A stretch of 32,637 nt of DNA. Source: a virus. Location of the stretch: positions 1 through 32,637 of IMG/VR virus record IMGVR_UViG_3300009184_000124. One strand, 5' to 3'. The position numbers were made by a program, and so were the translations under genes. The notes under the pieces were generated by a model. It saw only the letters and a program-made list of their open reading frames with translations. It was not told where the DNA came from and made no database searches. This document shows, one piece after another, positions 3,483 through 23,544 of the stretch; positions within the stretch are counted from its first letter, which is position 1, and each line of letters starts with the position of its first letter.

Positions 3483-5138
3483 TTAGATAACGTTGGTATC
3501 AGCTACCAATACTAAACCATAGTATTCAGGACGTACCATAGTCATTGCGTAACGAGTCATAATACCTTTTCTTGGAGTGAAGGTATTTGGATCGTACACA
3601 AGTGGAGTCATAATCAATGGAACGTATGGAGAGTAAACAGCACCACACTCAAGGAATTGATTACCACGGAATCCTAAAAGGATAGCGTTCTCAACCATGT
3701 AAGGGTTTTTGTATACTTTATAACGACTATTTAATTGGCCAATTTTCTGAACACCAAATGCATATTTCATAGTATCTGCTGCACCATCGGTATCAGCTGC
3801 AAATCCAGGGATTGATTCAAGGATAGTAGCGATAGTTGGAGAAACAACTAGGAAGTTAGCACCACCACGTAATGTACGTTGGTGAATGATGTTAGATACT
3901 TTTTGAAGTTTAATTCCAAGAGTTTGGAACCAACTCATTTGAGTATAATAAACACCAGCAGTGTTTGCAGTAAATCCAGTAGACGCATTTTGGTTAATTT
4001 GATTACCAACCTTTGCAGACCAGTACTCAATAGTTGGAGCATTTTGAATTAACATGTCTAATATTTCAAGATCAATCTCAAGAGAGATATGTTCAGAAAG
4101 AAGACCAGTCAATTCAGCTTCAGCATCAAGTGAATGATAAGCGTTAAGGTCTTGTGCAAATTCTGGAGTCCATTGTGCTTTTAACTTACGAGTTTTAGCA
4201 GAAATGGTTTGGCTCTTCATTTGTACATTGATATCAGGGATAACAATTGAAGTCGCAGACTGATTATTAGGAACTGCAGGAAGTCCTGAACGATCTTCGA
4301 AATCACCACGTGAGTTAAAATCAGTAGCTTTATTATAGCTAACGATATAAGGCGCAGTTGTACTACCAGAAAATCCTTTGTTAATAAAGAAGTTGATAAA
4401 TACACCAGCAGCACTTGAAGATACGGCTGTAAATTGCTGAAGAACATCAGTAACAGCAAAAGTACCAGAACCAGTAGCAATAGTAAAAGCACGAACACCA
4501 TCAAAATTTAAAGATCCGCTCAATGATGAAGTTGGTACAGTCAATTTAACAATACCATTTGGAGTAGAAGCTGTATAAGCAGCATCGTAATCTACTTCAA
4601 ACTGAGTTGCAGAAGCTGAAGTTGGACCTACGATAGAAGCAGAGAATTGGTTTAAAGAATAACCAAAACGACCAGCTCCATAAAGACCGCCAGCAGCAGC
4701 GTTACCAAAGTTTGCAGTTGCAGTACCATAAATAGAAGTATCAGCAGTAAAAGGTGATTTTGTATTTCCGTATTGGAAATCAAGATAGAACACCAAACCT
4801 GCAGGTAAGTTCATTGGTTGAACTGAAACAAACTCTTTAGACGCGATTTGACCAAAGATCTTACGAACTAAAGGTAAAGCTACACCAGCCCATTGTTCGC
4901 CGTTACCAGCTGTGAAAGTTGCTTGTGTGCCAGTTCCACCTGTTTGAGAAGATTCGATTACTAATTGTTTAGCTTGATTCTCAAGCATTAACGACATGTT
5001 ATTTTTGTCGTAATCTTGAAGGCCTTCTAAAAGACCTGATTTTCCCCATTTCTTGCATAATTTCTGAGCAACACCATGTTGATCAGAGAATGCTGTTTGG
5101 GCAGATTCGGTTAGTAAAGATTGTACTAAGTTTGCCAT
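3483..5138 (-). CDS. gp23: Major capsid protein (gp23-like)
   Basis: This is the main shell protein of the T4-type head. Starting at the ATG at 5138 (MANLVQSLL) it has 551 residues, near the 521 of T4 gp23. An in-frame ATG 72 nt upstream lies inside the scaffold gene and would add an unlikely 24-residue tail. The segment VSVQPMNLPAGLVFYLDFQYG (about 110-130) matches the T4 block around ICGVQPMNSPTGQVFALRAVYG. T4 gp23 is cleaved by gp21 after Glu65; here LVIE (59-62) followed by SSQTGGTG lies at the matching place, suggesting cleavage after Glu62. The C-terminal region has the family-like segment GIMTRYAMTMVRPEYYGLV. It follows the scaffold gene by 13 nt and is closed by a strong terminator. 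An A-rich leader replaces a clear Shine-Dalgarno sequence. Confidence 0.95.
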   Translation of the reverse strand: MANLVQSLLTESAQTAFSDQHGVAQKLCKKWGKSGLLEGLQDYDKNNMSLMLENQAKQLVIESSQTGGTGTQATFTAGNGEQWAGVALPLVRKIFGQIASKEFVSVQPMNLPAGLVFYLDFQYGNTKSPFTADTSIYGTATANFGNAAAGGLYGAGRFGYSLNQFSASIVGPTSASATQFEVDYDAAYTASTPNGIVKLTVPTSSLSGSLNFDGVRAFTIATGSGTFAVTDVLQQFTAVSSSAAGVFINFFINKGFSGSTTAPYIVSYNKATDFNSRGDFEDRSGLPAVPNNQSATSIVIPDINVQMKSQTISAKTRKLKAQWTPEFAQDLNAYHSLDAEAELTGLLSEHISLEIDLEILDMLIQNAPTIEYWSAKVGNQINQNASTGFTANTAGVYYTQMSWFQTLGIKLQKVSNIIHQRTLRGGANFLVVSPTIATILESIPGFAADTDGAADTMKYAFGVQKIGQLNSRYKVYKNPYMVENAILLGFRGNQFLECGAVYSPYVPLIMTPLVYDPNTFTPRKGIMTRYAMTMVRPEYYGLVLVADTNVI

Positions 5139-6335: not shown

Positions 6336-6362
6336 CAAAAATATTTTTACTAGTGAAGGCAA
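6336..6362 (-). promoter_or_regulatory. Possible Bacteroidota-type promoter before scaffold and capsid genes
   Basis: Minus-strand TTG at 6362-6360, a 16-nt spacer, then TATTTTTG at 6343-6336, which fits the Bacteroidota -7 consensus TAnnTTTG. A second TATTTTTG follows at 6327-6320 and overlaps the RATATTTAT motif. Spacing is about one nucleotide short of the usual 17-19, and AT-richness makes chance matches likely. Confidence 0.3.
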
Positions 6363-6982
6363 CAGATGCCTGACTGAGAACAAATAATATCAGAAATCAT
6401 TCTGTTAATCTTAGAGGTATTTGTATTTTGTTGAATATTTCTATCAACAGATTCTCTTAATCCAGAAACAGGTTTCATGTATGCACCATATGTTGATGGT
6501 GTTGAAACAAAATCCCAACAAATAAGATCAAGATCGTCTTCAACTTGTACTAGACCTTCACCAATAGGAGAAACAGAACCCATAGCTCTAGATGAAATTC
6601 CCACAGTAATATTATTTCTAAATAATTCCTTTAATATATTACCAGAAGGAGTTGGAAGTATTTCAATATCTCCATAAAGATCTTTTCCATCCCACCACAT
6701 CTTAATTATATTATGACTAACATTTTTAAGATTAATAACACTAGATTCTGGATGATCTAATTCTCCTAAAGCTCTATTTTCAGCAATAGGACCTGCAATA
6801 TATTTTTCAACTTGTTGAAATAGAATTCCATATGGATATATTCTATGATTTGCATTAGGCTTGTCACAAGCCTGAACTAAACCAGATACTACCATATTAC
6901 CATTAGCTAATCTTCTACCTTCAGTTAATGAATGAGGAAGCGGGCTAAATGCATTATATTCTATTAGAAGTTGTTTGTTCAT
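6350..6982 (-). CDS. gp21: Prohead core protease (gp21-like, serine peptidase family S77)
   Basis: gp21 matures the T4 prohead by cleaving scaffold, core proteins and gp23. This protein has 210 residues, the same size class as T4 gp21 (212). The fold landmarks are ANHRIYPYGILFQQVEKYI (45-62), the catalytic His in GELDHPES (His77), the Ser in GISSRAMG (Ser130 or Ser131), and the following DLDLICWDFVSTPS (150-163). All are typical of the phage prohead protease family. The start at 6982 overlaps the upstream gene stop as TAATG. The scaffold and capsid genes, its expected substrates, follow. Substrate consensus in T4 is (L/I)xE, which the capsid protein here offers. Confidence 0.93.
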   Translation of the reverse strand: MNKQLLIEYNAFSPLPHSLTEGRRLANGNMVVSGLVQACDKPNANHRIYPYGILFQQVEKYIAGPIAENRALGELDHPESSVINLKNVSHNIIKMWWDGKDLYGDIEILPTPSGNILKELFRNNITVGISSRAMGSVSPIGEGLVQVEDDLDLICWDFVSTPSTYGAYMKPVSGLRESVDRNIQQNTNTSKINRMISDIICSQSGICCLH

Positions 6983-8237: not shown

Positions 8238-9185
8238 TTATGGTAGTCGCATTATTGTTGCGGCTCTTCTTTCTATTTCTGCTTTATCCATATATGAATT
8301 AGTTTCAGAATCTTGTCCTCTTAACTTTGCAAGGGCTTTATCAATTCTATTTAAATCACGTCCATATCTATCAGCAATTGGCCCGCCTTCTGGTTCTGCT
8401 TCTTGCTCCATATCACTCATTAATTCAGCTCTGCGCCTTAAAAGTACTTTAATCTTTTCAGAATTTTTAATAGCCTTATAATCAGGATTAATTGTTTTTA
8501 CAGGTTCAGATTTTGGTTGAGATTTTTGATATGCTGCGGCTCTTACTTTCATTAAAATAGGATCATTAGCATCTAACTCTGATATATTTTTATCATCAGA
8601 TTGTGCATTTAATACTGCGGCAAATGATTTAGCGTCACGCACAGGCTCTCCAAATAATTCTACAGTAGGTTCATCATAATCATCTGACATATTTATTCGA
8701 ATTGCTCCATCTTGATAGCCTAAATCTAATACGAGTGTATTATAATTTTTACCTACCGCTGTACCACCTCTGATTCCTTTACCTGCTTTTTCTGCCCATG
8801 CGGCAACTTTATTTACCAAAGAGGTTACACCTTTGTCTTTTGCAAACTTTTTTATATTACTTGGTACATAAGCTTCACTTATTTCATCTTCTTCAATTGG
8901 ACCATGATCGTCTTCTGGATTGTCTGAACCATAGTCGTCATCATCATAGAATGAATCAGCGTCTTCAGCGTCTAGCATATCATTAACTATATCCATCATT
9001 TCATTGAAAGCACCTAATAGTCCTTGTTTTGAAACTGTTGGTATAGTAGAATCTGTTGATATATTACGATTTAAATTACTAAGTATAGCTTCTAATTTTT
9101 CTGCTGATGATTTAGATTTAGCTTCATTAATATTTTCTTTAAGTAGACCAGCTAATTTTTGTAATTGTTTTCTTTCATTATTCAT
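8238..9185 (-). CDS. Head-module protein of unknown function with amphipathic N-terminus
   Basis: A 315-residue protein. The N-terminus (MNNERKQLQKLAGLLKENIN) is a short amphipathic helix ending in INE-A, the pattern of a T4 capsid-targeting leader with an (L/I)xE cleavage point. A very acidic stretch (about 75-100) follows. Then comes an ordered segment (about 105-195) with GKGIRGGTAVGKNYNTLVLD and VELFGEPVRDAKSFAAVLN, and a helical charged C-terminus. I do not recognise the domains. Placement between portal and prohead protease suggests a prohead-core or internal head protein. The ATG at 9185 overlaps the upstream stop as TAATG. Confidence 0.7.
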   Translation of the reverse strand: MNNERKQLQKLAGLLKENINEAKSKSSAEKLEAILSNLNRNISTDSTIPTVSKQGLLGAFNEMMDIVNDMLDAEDADSFYDDDDYGSDNPEDDHGPIEEDEISEAYVPSNIKKFAKDKGVTSLVNKVAAWAEKAGKGIRGGTAVGKNYNTLVLDLGYQDGAIRINMSDDYDEPTVELFGEPVRDAKSFAAVLNAQSDDKNISELDANDPILMKVRAAAYQKSQPKSEPVKTINPDYKAIKNSEKIKVLLRRRAELMSDMEQEAEPEGGPIADRYGRDLNRIDKALAKLRGQDSETNSYMDKAEIERRAATIMRLP

Positions 9186-14294: not shown

Positions 14295-14986
14295 TATTTA
14301 TGCGTTATAGCAAGACTTACTACTAAAGCTGCTAGAACAAATTTTTGTATTTTACCAATTTTAAATCTTCTATTACTTTTTTTAATGTCTTCTTTTAATC
14401 CACCAATTTGAGTTTTGTAGTTATCACCTTGTTCAACTTGTTTTTGGATTATAGACTGATAATTAACCTCTTTATCTCTTAAAGTAGCCACTATTTGATT
14501 AGTATTTTGTATTGTTTGATCTTGATTAACTATAACATTATCTTGAGCAATTATAATATCTTTATTAATATCTGCTTGTTGTAAATCGACTACTACGGTT
14601 TTACTTACTTGAATAGGAAGTTGGGTTGTATCATTAGATACCTCAGCATACTTTTCAGGATATCTAGCAACAAAAAAACTATCTACTTGACTAGGAGTAT
14701 ATAAATGAGAAAGTTCTGATTGTTTTAAACTAGATTTTAAATTTGATATTTTACCTTTTAAAGAATCAGTTTTTTCAACTAAAAAAGCATTTTGTCCTTG
14801 TAGAGAATCTATACTTAATTCTAATGTATCATTTACAAGAGCAATAGAATCAATTCCATGTTGAAGAGAATCTATCTTTGCTTCATAAGGTTTAGTATTA
14901 AATTTAGCAGGCTTATAAACGAATAAATACCATATAACAATTAGGGCCGCAAGGATTAAGGAAATGCTAATCAGTGTCTTTTTCAT
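14294..14986 (-). CDS. Membrane-anchored coiled-coil protein with two terminal hydrophobic segments (possible lysis/spanin or envelope protein)
   Basis: A 230-residue protein with an N-terminal membrane segment after KK (residues about 4-24, LISISLILAALIVIWYLFVY). A long helical, probably coiled-coil, middle with repeated DSL/IDSLQ motifs (about 38-90) follows, and a Gln/Asn-rich helix lies at about 130-195. A second hydrophobic stretch near the C-terminus (about 213-228, KFVLAALVVSLAITHK) is preceded by basic residues. It lies directly upstream of terminase with TAATG coupling, and 20 nt of its start overlap the previous gene. The architecture could suit a spanin-like protein bridging the envelope, or a tail or structural protein. 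It has no lipobox and no homologue I recognise. Confidence 0.65.
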   Translation of the reverse strand: MKKTLISISLILAALIVIWYLFVYKPAKFNTKPYEAKIDSLQHGIDSIALVNDTLELSIDSLQGQNAFLVEKTDSLKGKISNLKSSLKQSELSHLYTPSQVDSFFVARYPEKYAEVSNDTTQLPIQVSKTVVVDLQQADINKDIIIAQDNVIVNQDQTIQNTNQIVATLRDKEVNYQSIIQKQVEQGDNYKTQIGGLKEDIKKSNRRFKIGKIQKFVLAALVVSLAITHK

Positions 14987-15332
14987 TATTATCTATTTTA
15001 GGTTGTTCTACAGAGTCTATCTGTTGTTTAAGAAGTCTTAATCTGTCAGGAATATTACCTACCGCTATTTTATATCCGGCTACATCTTTAAGTTTTAAGG
15101 TTCCGTCTGGGTTCCTTACACTATATTTAGCTATGATAGCTTTTACTTTTGATTGAAGATCAGCGTATTCTTTTTTCTTTTTATCAAGATCTCTAAAATC
15201 TTTTTCTGTTGATTTAAGATCTGCTTTAGTAGGCTCTTGATCTTCTAGATCTTCTTCTGCCTCCTCTCTGATTTTAGAAATAATAGTGAGATTATTCTCA
15301 GTTAAGTACTTCTGGATGTTAAACGGTTCCAT
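14967..15332 (-). CDS. Small charged protein, function unknown
   Basis: A 121-residue protein. The N-terminus MEPFNIQKYLTENNLTIISK followed by IREEAEED has a short leader-like helix and IREEA, then a charged coiled coil (TEKDFRDLDKKKKEYADLQS). A small ordered part lies at about 70-95 (SVRNPDGTLKLKDVAGYKIAV). No family is recognised. It overlaps the next gene by 20 nt, the largest overlap in the window. A RATATTTAT motif lies 14 nt before the ATG. Confidence 0.6.
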   Translation of the reverse strand: MEPFNIQKYLTENNLTIISKIREEAEEDLEDQEPTKADLKSTEKDFRDLDKKKKEYADLQSKVKAIIAKYSVRNPDGTLKLKDVAGYKIAVGNIPDRLRLLKQQIDSVEQPKIDNNEKDTD

Positions 15333-15653: not shown

Positions 15654-17555
15654 TTATTTTTGACCAAGTATTTGTATACCTGGTGTATTAATATATAGTG
15701 ACTTACCTGCCCATCCACCGCTAGCTCTAGTTCTTACTGTTAGTGGTATTTTTACAAATGCCTTAATAAGAGAACTGTAGAATGTTACTGTAAAAGATTG
15801 ACCTCCTGAAGTTGCTACACGTATGTCTTTTACATTTTTTGGAGTTGATTTTGTAAGTAAAATTTTTGCCTTTTCATCAGAAGACACGTCTTTTATTGTA
15901 GATCCTTTTTCTGTTCCAATTAATAATTTATATGGGCACGGAGTAGATCCAGCTTCTACTTGTCCATAAGTATAAAATCCTATAGTTTTTAAAAGATAAG
16001 AAACATTGTTTGAATCAGACCAATAATCAGTAAGATTATCAATTAATTGATTTCTAAATATGTAATAAAATCCGTCTTTATAAAAATCAAGACCATCTTT
16101 TTCAAACTCTCTAGCTAAATTTGCAAACGCATCTCTACTTGAACTTTCAGAATGTTTTTCTTTTGTTATATCAAATCCTTTAATAGCTTTAGATGCATTT
16201 GGACCTTTTACTTTTTTAGCAGCTTGATTCCAAGATTGATCTACAATATTTTTAATATTAGTATCTTGAGATTCGTCTCCTAATTTTTGAGCAAAAGCAG
16301 AAAGGCTTGTATTAAGTTTTGGAGTTGTATCTTCTCCTCCTGCGGTTATTTTATTAGAATATCCTATAAATGATCCGTCTCCTAACTCTATAATTATATC
16401 AGATGGATTTTTTGAAGATATGCCTCCAGGTTTTGCTCTAGGAGTCCAATATAATTTACTAGGAGTTTGTTTATTTGATTTTAAATCAGATTTTACTGCT
16501 TTAGCATTATTCATACCAATAGTAATATCTCTTTCTGGTGTTGAGTCTTGCACGATCATGTGACTCAGAAACTGCATTGACACTTCTTCACCTTCTCCAG
16601 TAAATACTCCACTATTTTTAAAACCTGGTTTCTTTGAAAATTTTATAAATTCTTTTGCACTACCATCAAAAGGATGCACTAAAAAATACAAAGATAGGAA
16701 CTCATTAACATTAGATGATGCTGTAGAATTTTTACGAAGCGAAGTACCATAATGTCCTGTTACTTCTGGCTTTGCAGCTTTTATATAATAACTAGTATCT
16801 TTTACATTTCCTGAATTATCAACCCCTATTTGAAATAAAAAGTTACCTTTTCTATCAATAGCAGGTTTTCCTTTAGGTTCAGTTATATTTTTAAAAACTA
16901 TTTTACTAGGATCTAATTTTAATTTTTTTGCAACCTGATTTTTTACATCGTCATTTAATGTATAGTATGGATTAAATCCGGCTTTTGTTTTATAGTTAGG
17001 ACTTATTGTTAATTCACTAACTATCTTTTTTTTTAAGATCCCTTCTAATATTTTAGATTCTGATAATTGTTCTTCGCCCGAAGTAGTGTCACTTGTTTCT
17101 GCCGGAGGTGTTGGCCCTGCTTCTTCTGCAGGTCCTTCTGAATCTCTAGTTGCTTGTTCTGCTCCTTCTGGACCTTTAGTCTTTAAAGGATTTCCATATC
17201 TTAATAATCTAGAAATAGCAACCATCGCTCTTTCCTTCTCACCAATAGTCATTAAATAATATTTCTTTCCTTGAACAGTTGCTTCATAAGCTTTTCCCAT
17301 GAACTGTAAAAAGAAAAATTGACCGTTGTGTAAAACTATTTTAAATGTAGTTGGCTTAGGAGCTACAACATATATACCGGTAACATATTCTTCAAATGAA
17401 GGAGTCATTAAGTATTCTAAAGTTGTTTTAAGACCTTGATACTTACTTAATATAAATTGCATAGGATCATCCTCAAACGTTGAAGTTTCAGGTTCCATCC
17501 TATCTAACTCATTTAAAAGTATAGCTTTTAGTATATCGTTATTACTCACTTGCAT
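15654..17555 (-). CDS. Large protein with possible PD-(D/E)XK-like nuclease core
   Basis: A 633-residue protein, the largest in the accessory run. An N-terminal domain (1-125) opens with a leader-like amphipathic helix (DILKAILLNELDRME) and ends in KERAMVAISRLLRYG. A Pro/Glu/Thr-rich linker (about 126-168) leads to a big C-terminal domain. There, Glu285 in SSNVNEFLSLYFL, Asp386 and Glu390 in PSDIIIELGDGSFIGYSNK, and Lys402 thirteen to sixteen residues on, resemble the E...D-x(n)-(S/E)xK spacing of some restriction-endonuclease-like proteins. That similarity is judged by eye and is weak. It sits 3 nt from the upstream gene's stop, in a set with similar N-termini. An injected or internal head enzyme is one possibility. 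Confidence 0.65.
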   Translation of the reverse strand: MQVSNNDILKAILLNELDRMEPETSTFEDDPMQFILSKYQGLKTTLEYLMTPSFEEYVTGIYVVAPKPTTFKIVLHNGQFFFLQFMGKAYEATVQGKKYYLMTIGEKERAMVAISRLLRYGNPLKTKGPEGAEQATRDSEGPAEEAGPTPPAETSDTTSGEEQLSESKILEGILKKKIVSELTISPNYKTKAGFNPYYTLNDDVKNQVAKKLKLDPSKIVFKNITEPKGKPAIDRKGNFLFQIGVDNSGNVKDTSYYIKAAKPEVTGHYGTSLRKNSTASSNVNEFLSLYFLVHPFDGSAKEFIKFSKKPGFKNSGVFTGEGEEVSMQFLSHMIVQDSTPERDITIGMNNAKAVKSDLKSNKQTPSKLYWTPRAKPGGISSKNPSDIIIELGDGSFIGYSNKITAGGEDTTPKLNTSLSAFAQKLGDESQDTNIKNIVDQSWNQAAKKVKGPNASKAIKGFDITKEKHSESSSRDAFANLAREFEKDGLDFYKDGFYYIFRNQLIDNLTDYWSDSNNVSYLLKTIGFYTYGQVEAGSTPCPYKLLIGTEKGSTIKDVSSDEKAKILLTKSTPKNVKDIRVATSGGQSFTVTFYSSLIKAFVKIPLTVRTRASGGWAGKSLYINTPGIQILGQK

Positions 17556-18004: not shown

Positions 18005-18463
18005 TTATTTAGCTTTTTTTCCTTCAAACAAATCTTCCATCATAGATTTAAGTTTCATTTGTATATCTTCTGCATCCCCGGCTGGTACTTCTTCTGTACC
18101 GTCTGGAAGTTCATCCATATCATATTCGCTAGTTGCGCCTTCATTGTATTCATGATAGTTTTTAGAAGCCTGGTTGATATAGTTTTCCGCATTAGTAATA
18201 TGATCTTGAATCCAAGCAGGAATATTTTTCTCATTTTGACCTATAGAATTCATTAATTGACTAGCAGCACTAATAATAGATTTTAAACTATTTTGTGCCA
18301 TAGAAACTTCATGATCTTGACCTTCTTCTTTAACTATTTGAGCCTGTAATTCATCAGGAAGATTTTTTTGTCCGCCTTTTAGTTTAGGATCATCATTATA
18401 TTTTTTAGTAAATGAAGCTTCATCCATTTCAAGAAGTGCTTTGATAAAAGATACTTTGTTCAT
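18005..18463 (-). CDS. Small helical protein with phage-conserved SMAQxxLKxI...IPAWIQDHI module
   Basis: A 152-residue protein. The N-terminus MNKVSFIKALLEMDEASF is leader-like. Residues about 52-105 (EVSMAQNSLKSIISAASQLM, then NIPAWIQDHITNAENYINQA) form a helical pair that I recall from many uncharacterised T4-type marine phage proteins, where the core reads PAWVQxKITxAxDY. The C-terminal third is acidic. The module occurs in proteins of differing architecture, so it is probably a docking or structural unit. Exact function is unknown. Confidence 0.65.
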   Translation of the reverse strand: MNKVSFIKALLEMDEASFTKKYNDDPKLKGGQKNLPDELQAQIVKEEGQDHEVSMAQNSLKSIISAASQLMNSIGQNEKNIPAWIQDHITNAENYINQASKNYHEYNEGATSEYDMDELPDGTEEVPAGDAEDIQMKLKSMMEDLFEGKKAK

Positions 18464-18464
18464 T

Positions 18465-18941
18465 TTATTTTTTTGTTGCTTTATTAATTTCTTTTGCCGC
18501 TTTAACTGCTTTTTTATATTCTTCTGATCCTTTTCTAGCAGGTTTTTCTCCTCTTGCTCTTTGAGCTCTTATATTTGCCCAAAGACCTGGCTTTTCTTTT
18601 TTCTCTTCTAAATCATAAATGCCTAATTCTTTTTCAATCTCAACAACATCATCATGACCTAATTCTAATAAGTCTTTTTCTAATTTATCAAGATTTAAAT
18701 GAGGTTGTCCTGATACGTACTTGGCAATATTTTGTTTGGTGTGATTATCACTATTAACAAAAGTATCAACTATATTCTGAAAGTGAATATCAGTTTTAGC
18801 CATTTCTTTTAAAATTTCTGTTAGTTTCATTTCTTTATTATTATGTCCACATTTATGACAAACGTAAGTATCTTTTCCTCCATCAGATAGCTTCCAATGA
18901 TGAGGACAATTCTTACAATATATTTCTTTATCTTTTACCAC
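18465..18941 (-). CDS. Zinc-ribbon protein with LWANIRAxRARGEKPAR motif, GTG start
   Basis: A 158-residue protein. It begins at GTG 18941; an in-frame TAG just upstream rules out a longer form, and a later ATG would remove the zinc ribbon. Cys9, Cys12, Cys28 and Cys31 (YCKNCPHHWKL... YVCHKCGHNN) form a zinc ribbon of a type common in phages of Bacteroidota. The middle has a leader-like LTEILKEMAKTD. The C-terminus has PGLWANIRAQRARGEKPARK followed by EEYKKAVKAA, a basic motif found in many phage proteins of unknown function (I think Pfam DUF5872, unverified). The start overlaps the previous gene by 7 nt, so coupled initiation may compensate for the weak GTG. Confidence 0.7.
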   Translation of the reverse strand: MVKDKEIYCKNCPHHWKLSDGGKDTYVCHKCGHNNKEMKLTEILKEMAKTDIHFQNIVDTFVNSDNHTKQNIAKYVSGQPHLNLDKLEKDLLELGHDDVVEIEKELGIYDLEEKKEKPGLWANIRAQRARGEKPARKGSEEYKKAVKAAKEINKATKK

Positions 18942-19405
18942 GCTCTACAACTCCAATATCTAGCTTTCCATCTTGGTCCAGGATTAGTATCACAATGATG
19001 TCTTGCTCTAAAACTTTTTCTCCTTGCAGGATTATTCTTCTTTATCTTTACTCCTTTCTGACCAAAGTTAACCTTAACCACATTTCCTTTATCATTCTTA
19101 ACATACACCTTAAACTTCTTGACATCACCAGCCATGGGCTTTCCTAATGGAACATTTCGACCTTGATACTTAGCTTCTTCAATAGGTTGATCCCAACATT
19201 CTTGGATATATTCAGCTAAACATTGAGGACAATATTCGCCTTCATTAAGTTCTTCTTCTAAACCAGCCTTAGCTAATTTATCATAATATTTTGGATCTTC
19301 TTTTATATGATCCATTGCTATTTTTAAAGCCATTTTTGGATCATTAGTATGTTCCTTTTCCTTCTCAAGGCCTTTCTTTATTTGTTGTAGCAAGGCTTTA
19401 TCCAT
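18935..19405 (-). CDS. Two-module phage protein (EHTxDPKxAxxIAxDHxKEDPxYY plus basic Cys/Trp C-terminus)
   Basis: A 156-residue protein. Residues about 11-47 (GLEKEKEHTNDPKMALKIAM, DHIKEDPKYYDKL) match a recurrent phage domain that I believe Pfam lists as DUF5661. A CPQC pair lies at about 59-62. The C-terminal part (KKFKVYVKNDKGNVVKVNFG, then NPARRKSFRARHHCD and GPRWKARYWSCRAW) is a well-conserved basic block I have seen in many T4-type phage proteins. No function is known for either module. The ATG at 19405 overlaps the upstream stop as TAATG. Confidence 0.7.
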   Translation of the reverse strand: MDKALLQQIKKGLEKEKEHTNDPKMALKIAMDHIKEDPKYYDKLAKAGLEEELNEGEYCPQCLAEYIQECWDQPIEEAKYQGRNVPLGKPMAGDVKKFKVYVKNDKGNVVKVNFGQKGVKIKKNNPARRKSFRARHHCDTNPGPRWKARYWSCRAW

Positions 19406-19767
19406 TAATGTAAAAATTTAAGCTTATACTTAGTTGATTCAATAAGACCTACTACATTATCAATCTCATTTTGAATATAAGAATCTTGAGGAACCTTTGT
19501 TCTAATTACTTCTACAAATTTAGATAGTGCGTCAAAATACATTACAGGATTATCATCTTCTTTAATAGCATTTTCCATTTTATATCCACGAAGAATACCA
19601 TATCTACCTTGATAAGATTCAACTAGTCCATCAGCTAACTCAATAATCTCTTCATAATACTCTTGTAGAGCTTTATGTGCTGCAAAAGAAGGAGTTTGTA
19701 AATGATATATGTGTGCTTGATTTCTAGATTGAAATAAAGTTCCAATAAATAGTGCGTATGGTTCCAT
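19405..19767 (-). CDS. Dps/ferritin-like small protein
   Basis: A 120-residue helical protein. The segment QAHIYHLQTPSFAAHKALQE then YYEEIIELADGLVE has His19, His31, Asp46 and Glu50. This spacing, H-x11-H-x14-D-x3-E, is the one used by Dps ferroxidase centres (for example Listeria Dps H31, H43, D58, E62). The order of aromatic and His residues (SFAAHKALQEYYEE) also resembles the Dps FFTLHEKFEELY block. It is shorter than Dps (about 150-160 aa). I think such phage proteins are placed in a DUF (possibly DUF5856, not verified). Iron binding or DNA protection is inferred. It is coupled to both neighbours by TAATG. Confidence 0.65.
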   Translation of the reverse strand: MEPYALFIGTLFQSRNQAHIYHLQTPSFAAHKALQEYYEEIIELADGLVESYQGRYGILRGYKMENAIKEDDNPVMYFDALSKFVEVIRTKVPQDSYIQNEIDNVVGLIESTKYKLKFLH

Positions 19768-20657
19768 TATTTTATTTTTTTAGCTGCTAATTTAGTATCT
19801 TTTTTTGATTTATTATCCATATAAGAACCCGGTCCCCACCAAGCAATTACTGCATCAGTATCAGCTGTTGAATTAAAATTTGGTCCAGCATTGAATACAT
19901 CTACATTTTGTAAATTTTTATTTGTGCTTATTAATTGCTTAGCAAAACTAAGAGCTGCTTTTGGATCTTTAAATTTTTTAGCTTGTCTTACACCATCTGA
20001 GAAATGTACTTCGTAAGCTTCTTTAAGATCTTTTTTATTGTCGTCTTTATTAATTTCTTTTTTAGACTTTTCAATCTTTTCTAACTTAGTCATAAGATCA
20101 TCAATTTGATGTGCTATTTTAGCAATATGTTCTTTATGTTTAGAAGCATTTTTTGGGTCTTCTTTTGCTAAATTGATATGTTCTTTATGTTTTTTCTCTA
20201 GTTGATCAATAGCTTTTTTAATTTTATCTCCAACTTGGCCTTTTTTCTCTTCAAGCATACTCTCTTCTTCACAATAAGCTTCATAAAGTTCATTAGCTAC
20301 TACGTTTGCTTGATCTTGATCAGCATATACTGCATGAACTTGATCAGGAACTATCTGATGTCCAGCTCCTATACCTAATAGAGGATCGATAGGTTCTACT
20401 AAAGAAGTCAATTGACATCCCGTATAAGGTTTTTTAACCATATATAAAGTTTCAATTGCTCCGTCTAGGTTTTCTTTCTTTACTTTTTTAGAAAGTCCTT
20501 TATGTTTAGTAGATGCAAAGTCAGTGACATCTCCTTTTTTCATTGATTTAGCCATTTCTTTTGCTTTACCTGATGCTTGAGAAGGTTTCATGTCTCCTGT
20601 TTGTAGAGCATGAACTATGCCCATTAGTTTTTGTTGTTGTTGTGAGGTCGCTGGCAT
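19767..20657 (-). CDS. DUF3008-like N-terminus fused to a charged coiled-coil region
   Basis: A 296-residue protein. The N-terminus (MPATSQQQQKLMGIVHALQT then AKSMKKGDVTDFASTKHKGL) matches a short phage domain opening MPAVSKKQQRFMGMV and containing FASTKHKGLP, which I believe is DUF3008. A middle with EPIDPLLGIGAGHQIVPDQVH (about 88-108) follows, then a Lys/Glu coiled coil (about 135-200). The C-terminal domain (about 210-280) has AYEVHFSDGVRQAKKFKDPK and DAVIAWWGPGSY. The DUF3008 module is frequent in T4-type marine phages, usually near structural genes, and its function is unknown. A RATATTTAT motif lies 16 nt before the ATG. Confidence 0.7.
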   Translation of the reverse strand: MPATSQQQQKLMGIVHALQTGDMKPSQASGKAKEMAKSMKKGDVTDFASTKHKGLSKKVKKENLDGAIETLYMVKKPYTGCQLTSLVEPIDPLLGIGAGHQIVPDQVHAVYADQDQANVVANELYEAYCEEESMLEEKKGQVGDKIKKAIDQLEKKHKEHINLAKEDPKNASKHKEHIAKIAHQIDDLMTKLEKIEKSKKEINKDDNKKDLKEAYEVHFSDGVRQAKKFKDPKAALSFAKQLISTNKNLQNVDVFNAGPNFNSTADTDAVIAWWGPGSYMDNKSKKDTKLAAKKIK

Positions 20658-21256: not shown

Positions 21257-22159
21257 TTATAACTTAAATTTATTTAATATGTTATTTGTTCCTTCAAATG
21301 ATTTATGCATAATTCCAATTCCTCCTATTTGTTTCCAAGGAGCTACATTTGGAAAATAATCATCAATTAGAATTGAATTTTTGATTTCTGATTCTGGTTT
21401 ATCTATTATTGCTTGATGTTTATTTCCAGCTTTTGCAAAAATAGTATTTTTAGGTTCCGGGGATAGATTTTCTTTAATCCAGATTTTTTTTCCTTCAATT
21501 GCGTATTTAAAATTTCCTGGACTTGTTAATATAGTTGGATTATATGGAGATATTTTAGCCCATAATTCTTTTCCTCCTGACATCCAAGGCATTTTACACC
21601 AGAATTGTACTCCTACTTTATCTACAGCATCCTCGAATACTTTTTTTCCTTTCTCATTACTATAATCTCTTGGATTTACTCCATAATAATGATCAAATTG
21701 AGTATCAAAATCACAAAGAACTCCATCCATGTCACAATATATCTTTAATCTAGATACTTTTTCCTCTTCATAAATGTCTTTTAGGCTAGGAGTCTTGATC
21801 TCATATATAAGTTCATTAGCTTTACCATAATTTCGCATTAAAACACCCGCTATTGAATTAGCTTCGTTCTCTATCTCTGATCCTGTTTGTCCAGATCCGT
21901 TTTTTAATACTCCAAGTTCTCCTTGTTTATGATGAACTAACTCATGGCCTAATGTTCTAAGTATATCTGCTAAATTTCTATTACCTATATAAACAAAAAG
22001 AGTTACTTTTCCTGGATCATACTCACCAAAACTATGCCTTTCTACTGCCCAAGCTCTATCATTAGTAAATTGGATAGGCGGTAGACTATCTATTTTTAAT
22101 ACAGATTTGCAATACTGTATAAACTCCTCTATAATTTGCTGTTTTAAATCTTCTGTCAT
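21257..22159 (-). CDS. Fusion of a HExxH metallopeptidase-like domain and a HAD-type phosphatase
   Basis: A 300-residue protein with two domains. Residues about 1-120 hold GHELVHHKQ (71-79; HExxH = His72, Glu73, His76) with a downstream Glu99 in SEIENEANSIAG, the layout of a small gluzincin-like metallopeptidase. Residues 138-300 start with LKIYCDMDGVLCDFD (motif I, Asp143 and Asp145) and contain ILTSPGN (motif II-like Ser/Thr) and SILIDDYFPNV (acidic motif IV). They match HAD phosphatases of the 5'-nucleotidase or polynucleotide-3'-phosphatase type. Substrates are unknown. It overlaps the nucleotidyltransferase gene by 4 nt (ATGA), and the kinase lies one gene further up. I cannot exclude that the peptidase part acts on a phage or host protein while the HAD part acts on nucleotides. 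Confidence 0.75.
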   Translation of the reverse strand: MTEDLKQQIIEEFIQYCKSVLKIDSLPPIQFTNDRAWAVERHSFGEYDPGKVTLFVYIGNRNLADILRTLGHELVHHKQGELGVLKNGSGQTGSEIENEANSIAGVLMRNYGKANELIYEIKTPSLKDIYEEEKVSRLKIYCDMDGVLCDFDTQFDHYYGVNPRDYSNEKGKKVFEDAVDKVGVQFWCKMPWMSGGKELWAKISPYNPTILTSPGNFKYAIEGKKIWIKENLSPEPKNTIFAKAGNKHQAIIDKPESEIKNSILIDDYFPNVAPWKQIGGIGIMHKSFEGTNNILNKFKL

Positions 22160-22746
22160 TTTATTATTTTAATAAGACGACCAAATACGTCTTTAGCAAC
22201 ACCTTTATTATATGCTGCATCAGGAATAAGCTTAGCAAACTCTTCAAAGTTACCAGTTTTAACTACGGCTCTCATATCTGTCGCTCTTATTCTACCAAAT
22301 TGTGCAGGTATAACTTGTTTTCTTACCCTATTAGGATATCTTTTTTGAATACTATCAAAATATCCTATTCCTTCTACCTCTTCTTCTCCGCCTGCAACAT
22401 ATATTGGGGCAACATCTGGATTCTCTGCCATAAAAGCAAATATATCTTTTATAGGTGTTGATTCTTTAGAGATTGAAACTTTTATTTTAGGATTTGGCTC
22501 AGCTTTAAGATATTCTTGCCAAATATAAAGAGAGTCTTCTGGTGTTATTCCAAATTTAGTTACATTAGATATAATTACATATACTATATTAATATAATTT
22601 AAAGATGCTAAGTATTTAGCGGCTTCAAAATGTCCTTTATGTGGAGGTTTAAATTTACCAGGAAAAAAACAAGGTCCTACATCAGGACTTCCTTCTCTTA
22701 ATAAATCTTCAACGATCTGTCTTCCTATATAATCAAAATTCATCAT
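22156..22746 (-). CDS. HxGH-type nucleotidyltransferase (cytidylyl/adenylyl-transferase-like)
   Basis: A 196-residue protein. Residues 28-45 (FPGKFKPPHKGHFEAAKY) contain the HxGH nucleotide-binding motif (His36-His39), and GRIRATDMRAVV (151-162) stands where ISSTxIR lies in NMN adenylyltransferases and related enzymes. VAGGEEE (118-124) is typical of the phage version. Such enzymes transfer AMP or CMP to a phosphate; the substrate (NMN, phosphopantetheine or something else) cannot be read from sequence. It starts ATGATG at 22746 and overlaps both neighbours by 4 nt. The N-terminus (YIGRQIVEDLLREGS) resembles the leader-like helices seen on other genes here. Confidence 0.8.
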   Translation of the reverse strand: MMNFDYIGRQIVEDLLREGSPDVGPCFFPGKFKPPHKGHFEAAKYLASLNYINIVYVIISNVTKFGITPEDSLYIWQEYLKAEPNPKIKVSISKESTPIKDIFAFMAENPDVAPIYVAGGEEEVEGIGYFDSIQKRYPNRVRKQVIPAQFGRIRATDMRAVVKTGNFEEFAKLIPDAAYNKGVAKDVFGRLIKIIK

Positions 22747-23528
22747 GATTTTATAAATGATTTTACTTTACTCACAACATTTGATATATTAGAACTGCCT
22801 AAAGATTTTACTTGAGATTCTATATCATCAAATTGATCAGATAGTATATCTATTTGTCTATCTACTAATTCTTTTGATTTAGCTATCTCTTCAGGAGTTT
22901 TCTGTTTAGCCGGATCATTTCTAAATGTAGACTTAAACTCTCCGGATTTTAGTAAGGACTCAAAAAATTGCTTTAATTCTCCAGAATTATATGCTTGATT
23001 AAATCGTTCTACCATTTTTGCTTCGTCTGGAGTTAATCCTGTTTCCACAAGATAAAATTTATCTCCGAACATTTGCTTATATGTAGAAAGATTTTTATAT
23101 ACACTATTCCAGCTAGTTAATACTCCAACTGTTGGAACCTTTCTTTCCCTTTTAAAGTTGCGAAGAAAACTAACAATTGGACTAGTATATACCATGACCA
23201 TCATAGTATCGTAACCAGAATCTACTATATTCTGTATTTTACTTGGATTTGCTCCTGTAGTATCATAAAGGAAATTTTGCCCTTTATTTACAGTTTGTGG
23301 TAATTCTTGTTTATCTATATATGAAGAAGCTTTGCCTAGATTATTATACATAGGACTATCTTTATCCTCAATATATTTATCTGCATTTAATTCAATCCAA
23401 TTATTACTTTTAAGATCAGGTTTAATTTGTTTTACAAATGTAGATTTGCCTGCTCCAGCGCCACCAGCCATAATAATGGCTTTTTTTTGAGATTTTACCT
23501 CTTTTAATATATCTAGTAGTTTGATCAT
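22743..23528 (-). CDS. P-loop kinase (zeta-toxin / polynucleotide-kinase-like)
   Basis: A 261-residue protein. Walker A is GGAGAGKST (22-30). LNADKYIE (about 46-53) and FLYDTTGANPSKI (about 86-98) fit the Asp and substrate-binding segments of the zeta-toxin/AAA_33 kinase group, and RNFKRERKV (about 122-130) could be the Arg lid. The C-terminal 90 residues are helical and charged. It might phosphorylate a nucleotide, a polynucleotide 5' end or a UDP-sugar. The neighbours are a nucleotidyltransferase and a HAD phosphatase. The N-terminus MIKLLDILKEVKSQKK is leader-like. A RATATTTAT motif lies 7 nt before the start. Confidence 0.8.
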   Translation of the reverse strand: MIKLLDILKEVKSQKKAIIMAGGAGAGKSTFVKQIKPDLKSNNWIELNADKYIEDKDSPMYNNLGKASSYIDKQELPQTVNKGQNFLYDTTGANPSKIQNIVDSGYDTMMVMVYTSPIVSFLRNFKRERKVPTVGVLTSWNSVYKNLSTYKQMFGDKFYLVETGLTPDEAKMVERFNQAYNSGELKQFFESLLKSGEFKSTFRNDPAKQKTPEEIAKSKELVDRQIDILSDQFDDIESQVKSLGSSNISNVVSKVKSFIKS

Positions 23529-23535
23529 ACTACCT

Positions 23536-23544
23536 ATAAATATT
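23536..23544 (-). promoter_or_regulatory. RATATTTAT motif upstream of the kinase gene
   Basis: AATATTTAT on the minus strand, 7 nt before the ATG at 23528, overlapping the stop codon of the nuclease gene. It heads the kinase / nucleotidyltransferase / HAD group. Confidence 0.45.

What the first reader, a model, noticed from the sequence alone, without database searches (positions are those of the whole stretch)
21257..23528. Coupled kinase, HxGH nucleotidyltransferase and metallopeptidase-HAD fusion cluster
Three genes overlap by ATGA and are headed by a RATATTTAT motif: P-loop kinase, nucleotidyltransferase, and HExxH-peptidase fused to HAD phosphatase. Kinase plus phosphatase is the layout of nucleic-acid end-healing (as in T4 Pnkp), and an HxGH nucleotidyltransferase is typical of NAD or coenzyme synthesis. 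The set could repair RNA or DNA ends, or rebuild a nucleotide or NAD pool depleted by host defences. It does not match any T4 operon I know.
Basis: partly seen in the sequence, partly recalled or inferred. Interest (0 to 1): 0.6.

Follow-up and report, generated by a model that had tools for sequence, protein, structure and literature searches.

The report
Phage head-packaged enzyme cassette, probably injected
A virus of bacteria related to phage T4 carries a tightly linked set of enzymes (a kinase, a nucleotidyltransferase, a metallopeptidase and a nucleotidase), two of which begin with a short tag like the one T4 uses to load proteins into its head, so the set is probably injected into the host together with the viral DNA.

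Summary
The three coupled genes are real: P-loop kinase 23528-22743, HxGH nucleotidyltransferase (NTase) 22746-22156, zincin-HAD fusion 22159-21257. They head a cargo-like region between primase and terminase of an Immutovirus-like T4-type phage, and the order is conserved in relatives (all four domains in 24 of 36 NTase loci with both flanks).

The kinase starts MIKLLDILKE|VKSQ. In 29 diverged kinases M1, L4 and E10 are invariant alongside the Walker A residues. This is the register of T4's capsid-targeting sequence (MKTYQEFIAE|A, residues 4/7 targeting, 8/10 processing) and of gp24 (MAKINELLRE|S). The same decapeptide occurs on some relatives of the NTase, HAD and peptidase, three unrelated folds. 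Prohead-protease-like sites (L/I-x-E|S/A) mark NTase-peptidase fusion junctions 16-fold above expectation. Cyanophage NTase relatives with this tag (S-SCSM1, S-CREM2) were found in virions by mass spectrometry by others.

Best reading: a cassette of head-packaged, prohead-protease-processed enzymes delivered at infection. Substrates are unproven. NTase resembles NadD/PPAT, kinase Pnkp/Zeta, HAD 5'(3')-nucleotidase; a role in NAD or nucleotide supply is plausible. T4-style end-healing is weakly supported (Pnk Arg38 absent). Weakest links: no proteomics of this virus; NTase tag in shifted register.

The parts
22743..23528 (-). P-loop kinase (Zeta/Pnkp superfamily), 261 aa, first gene of the cassette
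   Evidence: (AF2 pLDDT 87.7)
23499..23528 (-). kinase residues 1-10 MIKLLDILKE: capsid-targeting-like tag with prohead-protease-like site after E10
   Evidence: M1, L4, E10 invariant in 29 kinases; exact T4 register in 23/25 representatives vs 0.15 expected by shuffling; outside the fold, pLDDT 59
22156..22746 (-). HxGH nucleotidyltransferase, NadD/NadM/PPAT-like, 196 aa
   Evidence: (pLDDT 89.6)
22693..22746 (-). NTase residues 1-18 MMNFDYIGRQIVEDLLRE: longer tag-like helix ending LLRE|G
   Evidence: helix 4-19 precedes the fold with pLDDT 66-72; spacing pattern found in 25/53 NT representatives
21797..22159 (-). zincin (gluzincin-like) metallopeptidase domain, HELVHH ... ENEAN
   Evidence: H72, E73, H76, E97 and N98 invariant
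21749..21796 (-). inter-domain linker with tag-like SLKDIYEEEK; possible processing site, weak
   Evidence: separate HAD relatives start MIKLLDILKEAEEQ, MITLGDILKEV
21260..21748 (-). HAD phosphatase of 5'(3')-deoxyribonucleotidase (NT5C) type
   Evidence: phrog_2643 E 2e-24; PDB 5'(3')-deoxyribonucleotidases E about 0.01; all HAD motifs conserved
23536..23544 (-). AATATTTAT element before the kinase start; candidate late promoter or start signal
6350..6982 (-). gp21-type prohead protease, catalytic His/Ser/Asp kept, N-terminus MNKQLLIE like T4 MNEPQLLIE
3483..5138 (-). gp23-type major capsid protein with QLVIE|SS aligned to the T4 site FLTE|A, and N-terminus MANLVQSLLTE|S
19767..20657 (-). DUF3008-domain protein; homologue of S-SCSM1 gp279, annotated as a virion protein
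   Evidence: E 7e-16
18935..19405 (-). Cys/His-rich RKSFRARHxC domain protein; in Methylophilales phage Melnitz the same domain is fused to the NTase polypeptide
   Evidence: E 7e-18
18465..18941 (-). candidate further cargo: internal start gives MKLTEILKE|M
14967..15332 (-). candidate further cargo: MEPFNIQKYLTE|N
15654..17555 (-). candidate further cargo, 633 aa, MQVSNNDILKAILLNE

Best explanation
The cluster is the front of a cassette of head-packaged enzymes. Mechanism: (1) the enzymes are made late with the head proteins; (2) a short hydrophobic N-terminal (or linker/C-terminal) tag of the T4 capsid-targeting type draws them into the prohead core; (3) the virus's gp21-type prohead protease cuts after (L/I)-x-E, freeing mature enzymes inside the head and, in relatives with fusions, cutting polyproteins at domain junctions; (4) the enzymes are injected with the DNA and act before any viral gene is expressed. 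In the host, the kinase, the NadD-like adenylyltransferase and the 5'(3')-nucleotidase most likely act on small nucleotide or coenzyme substrates (a NAD-type supply or repair step is my leading guess, about 0.35), and the zincin cuts a host or cargo protein. Shown here: domain classes, intact active-site residues, conserved linkage, tag conservation and register, junction sites, intact protease, and homology of the NTase and the DUF3008 neighbour to proteins reported in virions. Inferred: packaging and cleavage in this virus, injection, substrates.
For: Kinase tag: M1, L4, E10 invariant in 29 sequences at 28-73% identity to the window protein; exact register M..[hydrophobic]..[hydrophobic]2.E in 23/25 representatives vs shuffle mean 0.15, max 2. 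T4 comparison from fetched T4 sequence: IPII/IPIII MKTYQEFIAE, gp24 MAKINELLRE, gp21 MNEPQLLIE; literature: residues 4 and 7 target, 8 and 10 process, 10 aa suffice (PMC9026906); gp24 loses a 10-residue peptide (PMC9958956). The same decapeptide on unrelated folds: HAD MIKLLDILKE, MIKLMSLLKE, MITLGDILKE; peptidase MKKFREYLKE; cyanophage NTases MKKFSAFLTE, MKSFLQFLKE, MKNFSSFLTE, MKKFNAFLIE, MKSFFQFLSE. Virions: S-SCSM1 NMNAT and four of its neighbours, next to the same primase gene, are annotated as virion proteins (PMC9602691); S-CREM2 cytidylyltransferase detected by MS (PMC10665884). Junctions: 20 of 57 [LI]xE[SAG] sites fall in the 13-aa junction window of 21 NT-peptidase fusions, 1.25 expected. 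Prohead protease triad and gp23 site intact. Immuto genome: tag pattern in 11/23 genes of the cargo/head region vs 19/204 elsewhere, p 1.6e-5.
Against: No proteomics of this virus; cleavage and packaging not observed. The window NTase tag is in a shifted register (E at 18), and the window peptidase has no clear N-terminal tag. In S-SCSM1 the tag patterns do not separate virion from other proteins in general (p 0.38 and 0.066 for two patterns, 0.028 for a third), so most virion proteins enter otherwise. The authors of the virion studies note that abundant enzymes could be contaminants. Counts within families are not independent of descent, and the immuto region boundaries were set after looking at part of it. 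Some NTase relatives (MIKTVIAIYPGRFQP type) have no tag.
Confidence: 0.76

Rival explanations
1. Ordinary cytoplasmic auxiliary metabolic genes: a nucleotide/NAD salvage operon expressed during infection, with the N-terminal peptide serving only folding or complex formation.
For: Enzyme classes fit nucleotide or NAD metabolism; virion detections of relatives could be contamination, as their authors say.
Against: The tag is shared by four unrelated folds, in T4 register, ends in the prohead-protease motif, lies outside the folds, and the genes sit between terminase and primase among other tag-bearing genes.
Confidence: 0.13
2. Nucleic-acid end healing as in T4 Pnkp: the kinase phosphorylates 5'-OH ends, the HAD removes 3'-phosphates, and the NTase activates or caps. 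(A statement about substrates; compatible with packaging.)
For: Foldseek best hits include Clostridium thermocellum Pnkp kinase (2e-6); profile hits T4 Pnk at 2e-4; the lid Arg and the Asp base align with T4 Pnk.
Against: T4 Pnk Arg38 (binds the 3'-phosphate of the acceptor, own knowledge) is replaced by Tyr/Ile at the aligned place, next to an invariant Glu; the HAD matches 5'(3')-deoxyribonucleotidase families, not the Pnk phosphatase; no RNA ligase was seen among the genes that I scanned (not a full test).
Confidence: 0.15
3. Split NadR-like pathway: the kinase makes NMN from nicotinamide riboside, the NTase makes NAD, supplied by the virion at once to counter NAD-depleting defences. (A statement about substrates; compatible with packaging.)
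For: NTase fold nearest NadD; immuto homologue annotated NadR; NT and kinase fused NT-then-kinase in L129, L148, L157 and others; NMNAT-like proteins recur in cyanophage virions.
Against: The kinase scores as Zeta/Pnkp, not as the NadR kinase (Pfam AAA_28 E 0.097); PPAT and citrate-lyase-ligase profiles score as well as NMNAT profiles.
Confidence: 0.3
4. Zeta-type attack: the injected kinase phosphorylates UDP-N-acetylsugars and stops host wall synthesis, and the other enzymes support this. (A statement about substrates; compatible with packaging.)
For: Pfam Zeta_toxin above cut-off (48.3 vs 22.3 bits); profile best PDB hit Zeta/PezT at about 1e-7; zeta-like kinases are described in injected phage proteins (PMC5512222).
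Against: Only the P-loop and catalytic Asp are shared at residue level; no test of the sugar-binding residues was possible; it does not explain the linked NTase and nucleotidase.
Confidence: 0.15

Closest known systems
T4 internal head proteins with capsid-targeting sequence (IPI, IPII, IPIII, Alt) and gp21 processing
   Same: Short N-terminal tag with hydrophobic residues at 4, 7, 8 and Glu at 10, cleavage motif (L/I)xE, intact gp21-type protease, variable cargo genes.
   Different: Cargo are predicted metabolic-type enzymes in a conserved operon; tags also appear in linkers and perhaps at C-termini; packaging is not shown for this virus.
NMNAT/cytidylyltransferase proteins found in cyanophage virions (S-CBWM1, S-SZBM1, S-SCSM1, S-CREM2)
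   Same: Related NTase family (phrog_395/phrog_3041), next to the same primase gene in S-SCSM1; same tag in the six cyanophage members read here.
   Different: Cyanophage loci read here lack the adjacent kinase and peptidase; the published reports give no targeting mechanism.
Polyvalent proteins (Iyer et al. 2017, PMC5512222)
   Same: Injected sets of unlike enzymes including zincin peptidases and zeta-like kinases; fused members such as immuto gp088 (PolB-like NTase, NadD-like NTase, zincin).
   Different: In the window the domains are mostly separate genes, and the proposed liberating enzyme is the prohead protease rather than the embedded zincin.
T4 Pnkp (PseT)
   Same: Kinase fold, Asp base and lid Arg; a HAD enzyme in the same operon.
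   Different: Arg38 absent, HAD of nucleotidase type and in a different polypeptide, extra N-terminal tag.
NadR and phage NAD reconstitution (NARP) enzymes
   Same: HxGH adenylyltransferase plus P-loop kinase.
   Different: Kinase family differs; gene order kinase then NTase in the window; substrate unknown.

Membership tests
T4-type capsid-targeted internal proteins | N-terminal decapeptide with targeting residues 4/7 and processing residues 8/10 | tested here: met
   Kinase: L4, I7, L8, E10; 23/25 representatives. Window NTase only in a shifted register.
T4-type capsid-targeted internal proteins | Cognate prohead protease with intact catalytic residues and the same cleavage motif in the major capsid protein | tested here: met
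   H/S/D kept; gp23 QLVIE|SS aligned to T4 FLTE|A
T4-type capsid-targeted internal proteins | Protein present and processed in the virion | not testable with these tools
   Only relatives: S-SCSM1 and S-CREM2 NTases reported in virions
T4-type capsid-targeted internal proteins | Tag on the zincin-HAD protein of the window | tested here: inconclusive
   Linker SLKDIYEEEK is tag-like, but the conserved IYE before it also ends stand-alone peptidases
T4 Pnkp | P-loop, general base Asp35 and lid Arg126 | tested here: met
   aligned D50 and R127
T4 Pnkp | Arg38 contacting the acceptor 3'-phosphate | tested here: not met
   aligned place holds Tyr/Ile, followed by invariant Glu54
T4 Pnkp | Fused 3'-phosphatase HAD domain | tested here: not met
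   HAD is in another gene and of NT5C type
Zeta toxin kinases | Pfam Zeta_toxin above the curated cut-off | tested here: met
   48.3 vs 22.3 bits
Zeta toxin kinases | UDP-GlcNAc binding residues and partner antitoxin | not tested
   only residues up to the lid align; antitoxin not searched for
NMN/NaMN adenylyltransferase | (H/T)xGH and SxTxxR-type motifs, NadD-like fold | tested here: met
   H39 and R159 invariant; Foldseek NadD 4e-7
NMN/NaMN adenylyltransferase | NMN/NaMN specificity rather than phosphopantetheine or another substrate | tested here: inconclusive
   NadD, NadM, PPAT and citrate lyase ligase all match
NadR | ribosylnicotinamide kinase domain of the NadR type | tested here: not met
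   AAA_28 E 0.097, far below cut-off; Zeta/Pnkp preferred
Polyvalent proteins | several unlike enzymatic domains in one polypeptide | tested here: inconclusive
   Window: two domains in one ORF; relatives: up to three (immuto gp088, L152)
5'(3')-deoxyribonucleotidase (NT5C) | HAD motifs DxDG, T/S, K, DD and family match | tested here: met
   phrog_2643 2e-24; motifs

The most novel reading that the evidence does not exclude
Many T4-like phages of aquatic bacteria deliver a small biochemical pathway, not just single inhibitors, from the capsid: tag-bearing kinase, adenylyltransferase, nucleotidase and peptidase are loaded and trimmed by the prohead protease (sometimes from polyproteins) and rebuild or redirect a nucleotide/NAD pool at time zero, before host abortive defences can act.
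Probability: 0.33. Interest if true: 0.85.

Novelty: new variant of a known kind. Interest (0 to 1): 0.64.

Why it matters
[quoted passage not shown] The tag found here gives a simple, testable one, links it to three further enzyme families, and offers a sequence rule for predicting injected cargo in uncultured T4-like phages. If the set repairs NAD or nucleotides, it would be counter-defence that acts before gene expression.

Tried and rejected
IYE at the end of the peptidase domain looked like a cleavage site but also ends stand-alone peptidases, so it is not evidence. In S-SCSM1 the tag patterns do not separate virion from non-virion proteins in general: p 0.38 for the broad pattern, 0.066 and 0.028 for two narrower ones; only the NMNAT among the internal proteins is a clear case. 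The window kinase and NTase had no tblastn match in the phage collection when used directly; the bridge came through the peptidase-HAD protein and the Melnitz NTase, and a diverged kinase found HTVC008M, Melnitz and Atu_ph07. The kinase was not found in immuto. hhalign of the kinase profile with T4 Pnk gave no usable output; a MAFFT addition was used instead. The Atu_ph07 kinase protein gp053 (in the CDS 31-76 virion-rich cluster) could not be checked individually, since supplements were out of reach. No tRNA genes in the window.

Full report
Observation. Domain searches give Zeta_toxin for the kinase (E 1e-12), a cytidylyltransferase-like fold for the second (33 of 38 family members hit Pfam CTP_transf_like), and an HExxH peptidase followed by a 5'(3')-deoxyribonucleotidase-type HAD for the third (phrog_2643, E 2e-24). 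Active-site residues are conserved in all four domains. AATATTTAT stands just before the kinase. The motif is over-represented in the window (11 vs 5.4 expected) and ATATTTAT is kept upstream of 19 of 25 diverged kinase genes, so the kinase probably starts a transcription or translation unit.

Setting. The window is a 32.6 kb virus record. Its portal protein is 55% identical to that of Flavobacterium phage immuto. The cluster lies between a primase/exonuclease pair and the terminase-portal-prohead protease-capsid block, as in immuto. In immuto the NTase and peptidase are fused with a PolB-like domain in gp088 (907 aa), followed by a separate HAD, gp087.

Linkage. In 52 distinct NTase loci the peptidase is adjacent or fused in 37/38, the kinase directly upstream in 31/50, the HAD within 4 kb or fused in 26/38, and all are present in 24/36 with both flanks. 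Pelagibacter phage HTVC008M has kinase gp129 overlapping NTase gp130, and HAD gp134 shortly after.

The tag. Aligned kinases share an N-terminal decapeptide M-I-x-L-x-x-L-L-x-E; M1, L4 and E10 are invariant although identity to the window protein falls to 28%. In the structure model it is a loose helix before the first strand with low confidence, and T4 Pnk starts where the fold starts, without it. In T4, fetched here, IPII/IPIII begin MKTYQEFIAE, gp24 MAKINELLRE, gp21 MNEPQLLIE, and gp23 carries FLTE|A. The literature says that ten residues of IPIII suffice for packaging, that residues 4 and 7 matter for targeting and 8 and 10 for processing (PMC9026906), and that gp24 loses ten residues (PMC9958956). 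The kinase matches this register (L4, I7, L8, E10): 23 of 25 representatives fit the strict pattern against a shuffle mean of 0.15. Genome-wide background for the strict pattern is 4/275 in S-SCSM1 and 8/227 in immuto.

The same decapeptide stands at the N-terminus of relatives of the other three enzymes, which are unrelated folds: HAD (MIKLLDILKEAEEQ, MIKLMSLLKEVEEA, MITLGDILKEVTNS), peptidase (MKKFREYLKEQETH) and cyanophage NTases (MKKFSAFLTEA, MKSFLQFLKEA, MKNFSSFLTEA, MKKFNAFLIEA, MKSFFQFLSEA). Some stand-alone peptidases carry it at the C-terminus (SLKLGNILKEIKRK). In 21 distinct NTase-peptidase fusions, 20 of 57 [LI]xE[SAG] motifs fall within 13 residues of the junction, with 1.25 expected, often as tandem LTEG-RLNES. 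These fusions are mostly one clade, so the number of independent events is small. Within the immuto genome the pattern is found in 11/23 genes of the cargo/head region and 19/204 elsewhere (p 1.6e-5); the region limits were chosen after I had seen part of it.

Virion evidence from relatives. In Synechococcus phage S-SCSM1 the NMNAT gene and four neighbours (gp089, gp282, gp280, gp279), close to the same primase, are annotated as virion proteins, and the paper reports NMNAT in the virion (PMC9602691). gp279 is homologous to the window DUF3008 protein (E 7e-16). S-CREM2's cytidylyltransferase, which starts MKNFSSFLTEA, was also detected (PMC10665884). Authors speculated on carriage but gave no targeting signal, and warned of contamination. 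In S-SCSM1 the tag does not explain virion proteins at large, so it marks a subset. The window virus has an intact gp21-type protease and an aligned gp23 site.

What the enzymes do. The NTase model (pLDDT 89.6) is closest to NadD and then PPAT; sequence profiles do not separate NMN/NaMN, phosphopantetheine and citrate-lyase-ligase types. The kinase model is closest to Clostridium thermocellum Pnkp kinase and Zeta; D50 and R127 align with the T4 Pnk base and lid, but Arg38 is absent. The HAD is nucleotidase-like. In other phages NTase and kinase are one polypeptide, which argues for a shared pathway. I lean to nucleotide/coenzyme, perhaps NAD, supply at the start of infection, but this step is inference. 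T4-style end-healing is less likely.

Verdict. The parts are known kinds (T4 internal proteins, polyvalent proteins, virion NMNATs). The combination, the shared tag across four enzyme families and the junction sites appear not to have been described in the papers I could search, which cover open-access literature only.

Noticed in passing
window 3408, 8079, 10774, 15347, 20674, 23536 (-) and 27968, 31742 (+): RATATTTAT on the coding strand just before several late gene starts; in immuto 16 forward vs 1 reverse occurrence. It contains the reverse complement of T4's TATAAATA late element (in part), so possibly a late promoter or a start-site signal of this group.
   Followed up: partly
window 18935-19405: RKSFRARHxC...YWxC domain that is fused C-terminally to the NTase polypeptide in Melnitz and stands next to the NTase in HTVC008M (gp131): probably part of the same cargo set.
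   Followed up: partly
L223 (Agrobacterium phage Atu_ph07) gp053-gp055: Three adjacent proteins begin M(K/R)W..L(N/T)E and look ADP-ribosyltransferase-like; gp053 also holds the kinase domain (phrog_12810). They lie in a cluster rich in MS-detected virion proteins. Possible Alt-like injected ART-kinase fusion.
   Followed up: no
L195 gp076, gp077, gp080, gp082, gp092, gp093, gp095 (immuto): Many hypothetical proteins share tag-like N-termini (MENFDLKKFLVE, MRLLELLRE, MISIYNILKE): candidate further injected cargo.
   Followed up: partly
window 15654-17555, 18005-18463, 8238-9185 vs immuto gp079 (841 aa): Pieces of three separate window proteins match parts of one immuto protein, suggesting repeated fusion and fission of cargo (some of this may be low-complexity similarity).
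   Followed up: no
L043, L044, L063, L065 and immuto gp088-gp089: DNA polymerase beta-type nucleotidyltransferase domain fused in front of the HxGH NTase and the peptidase.
   Followed up: no
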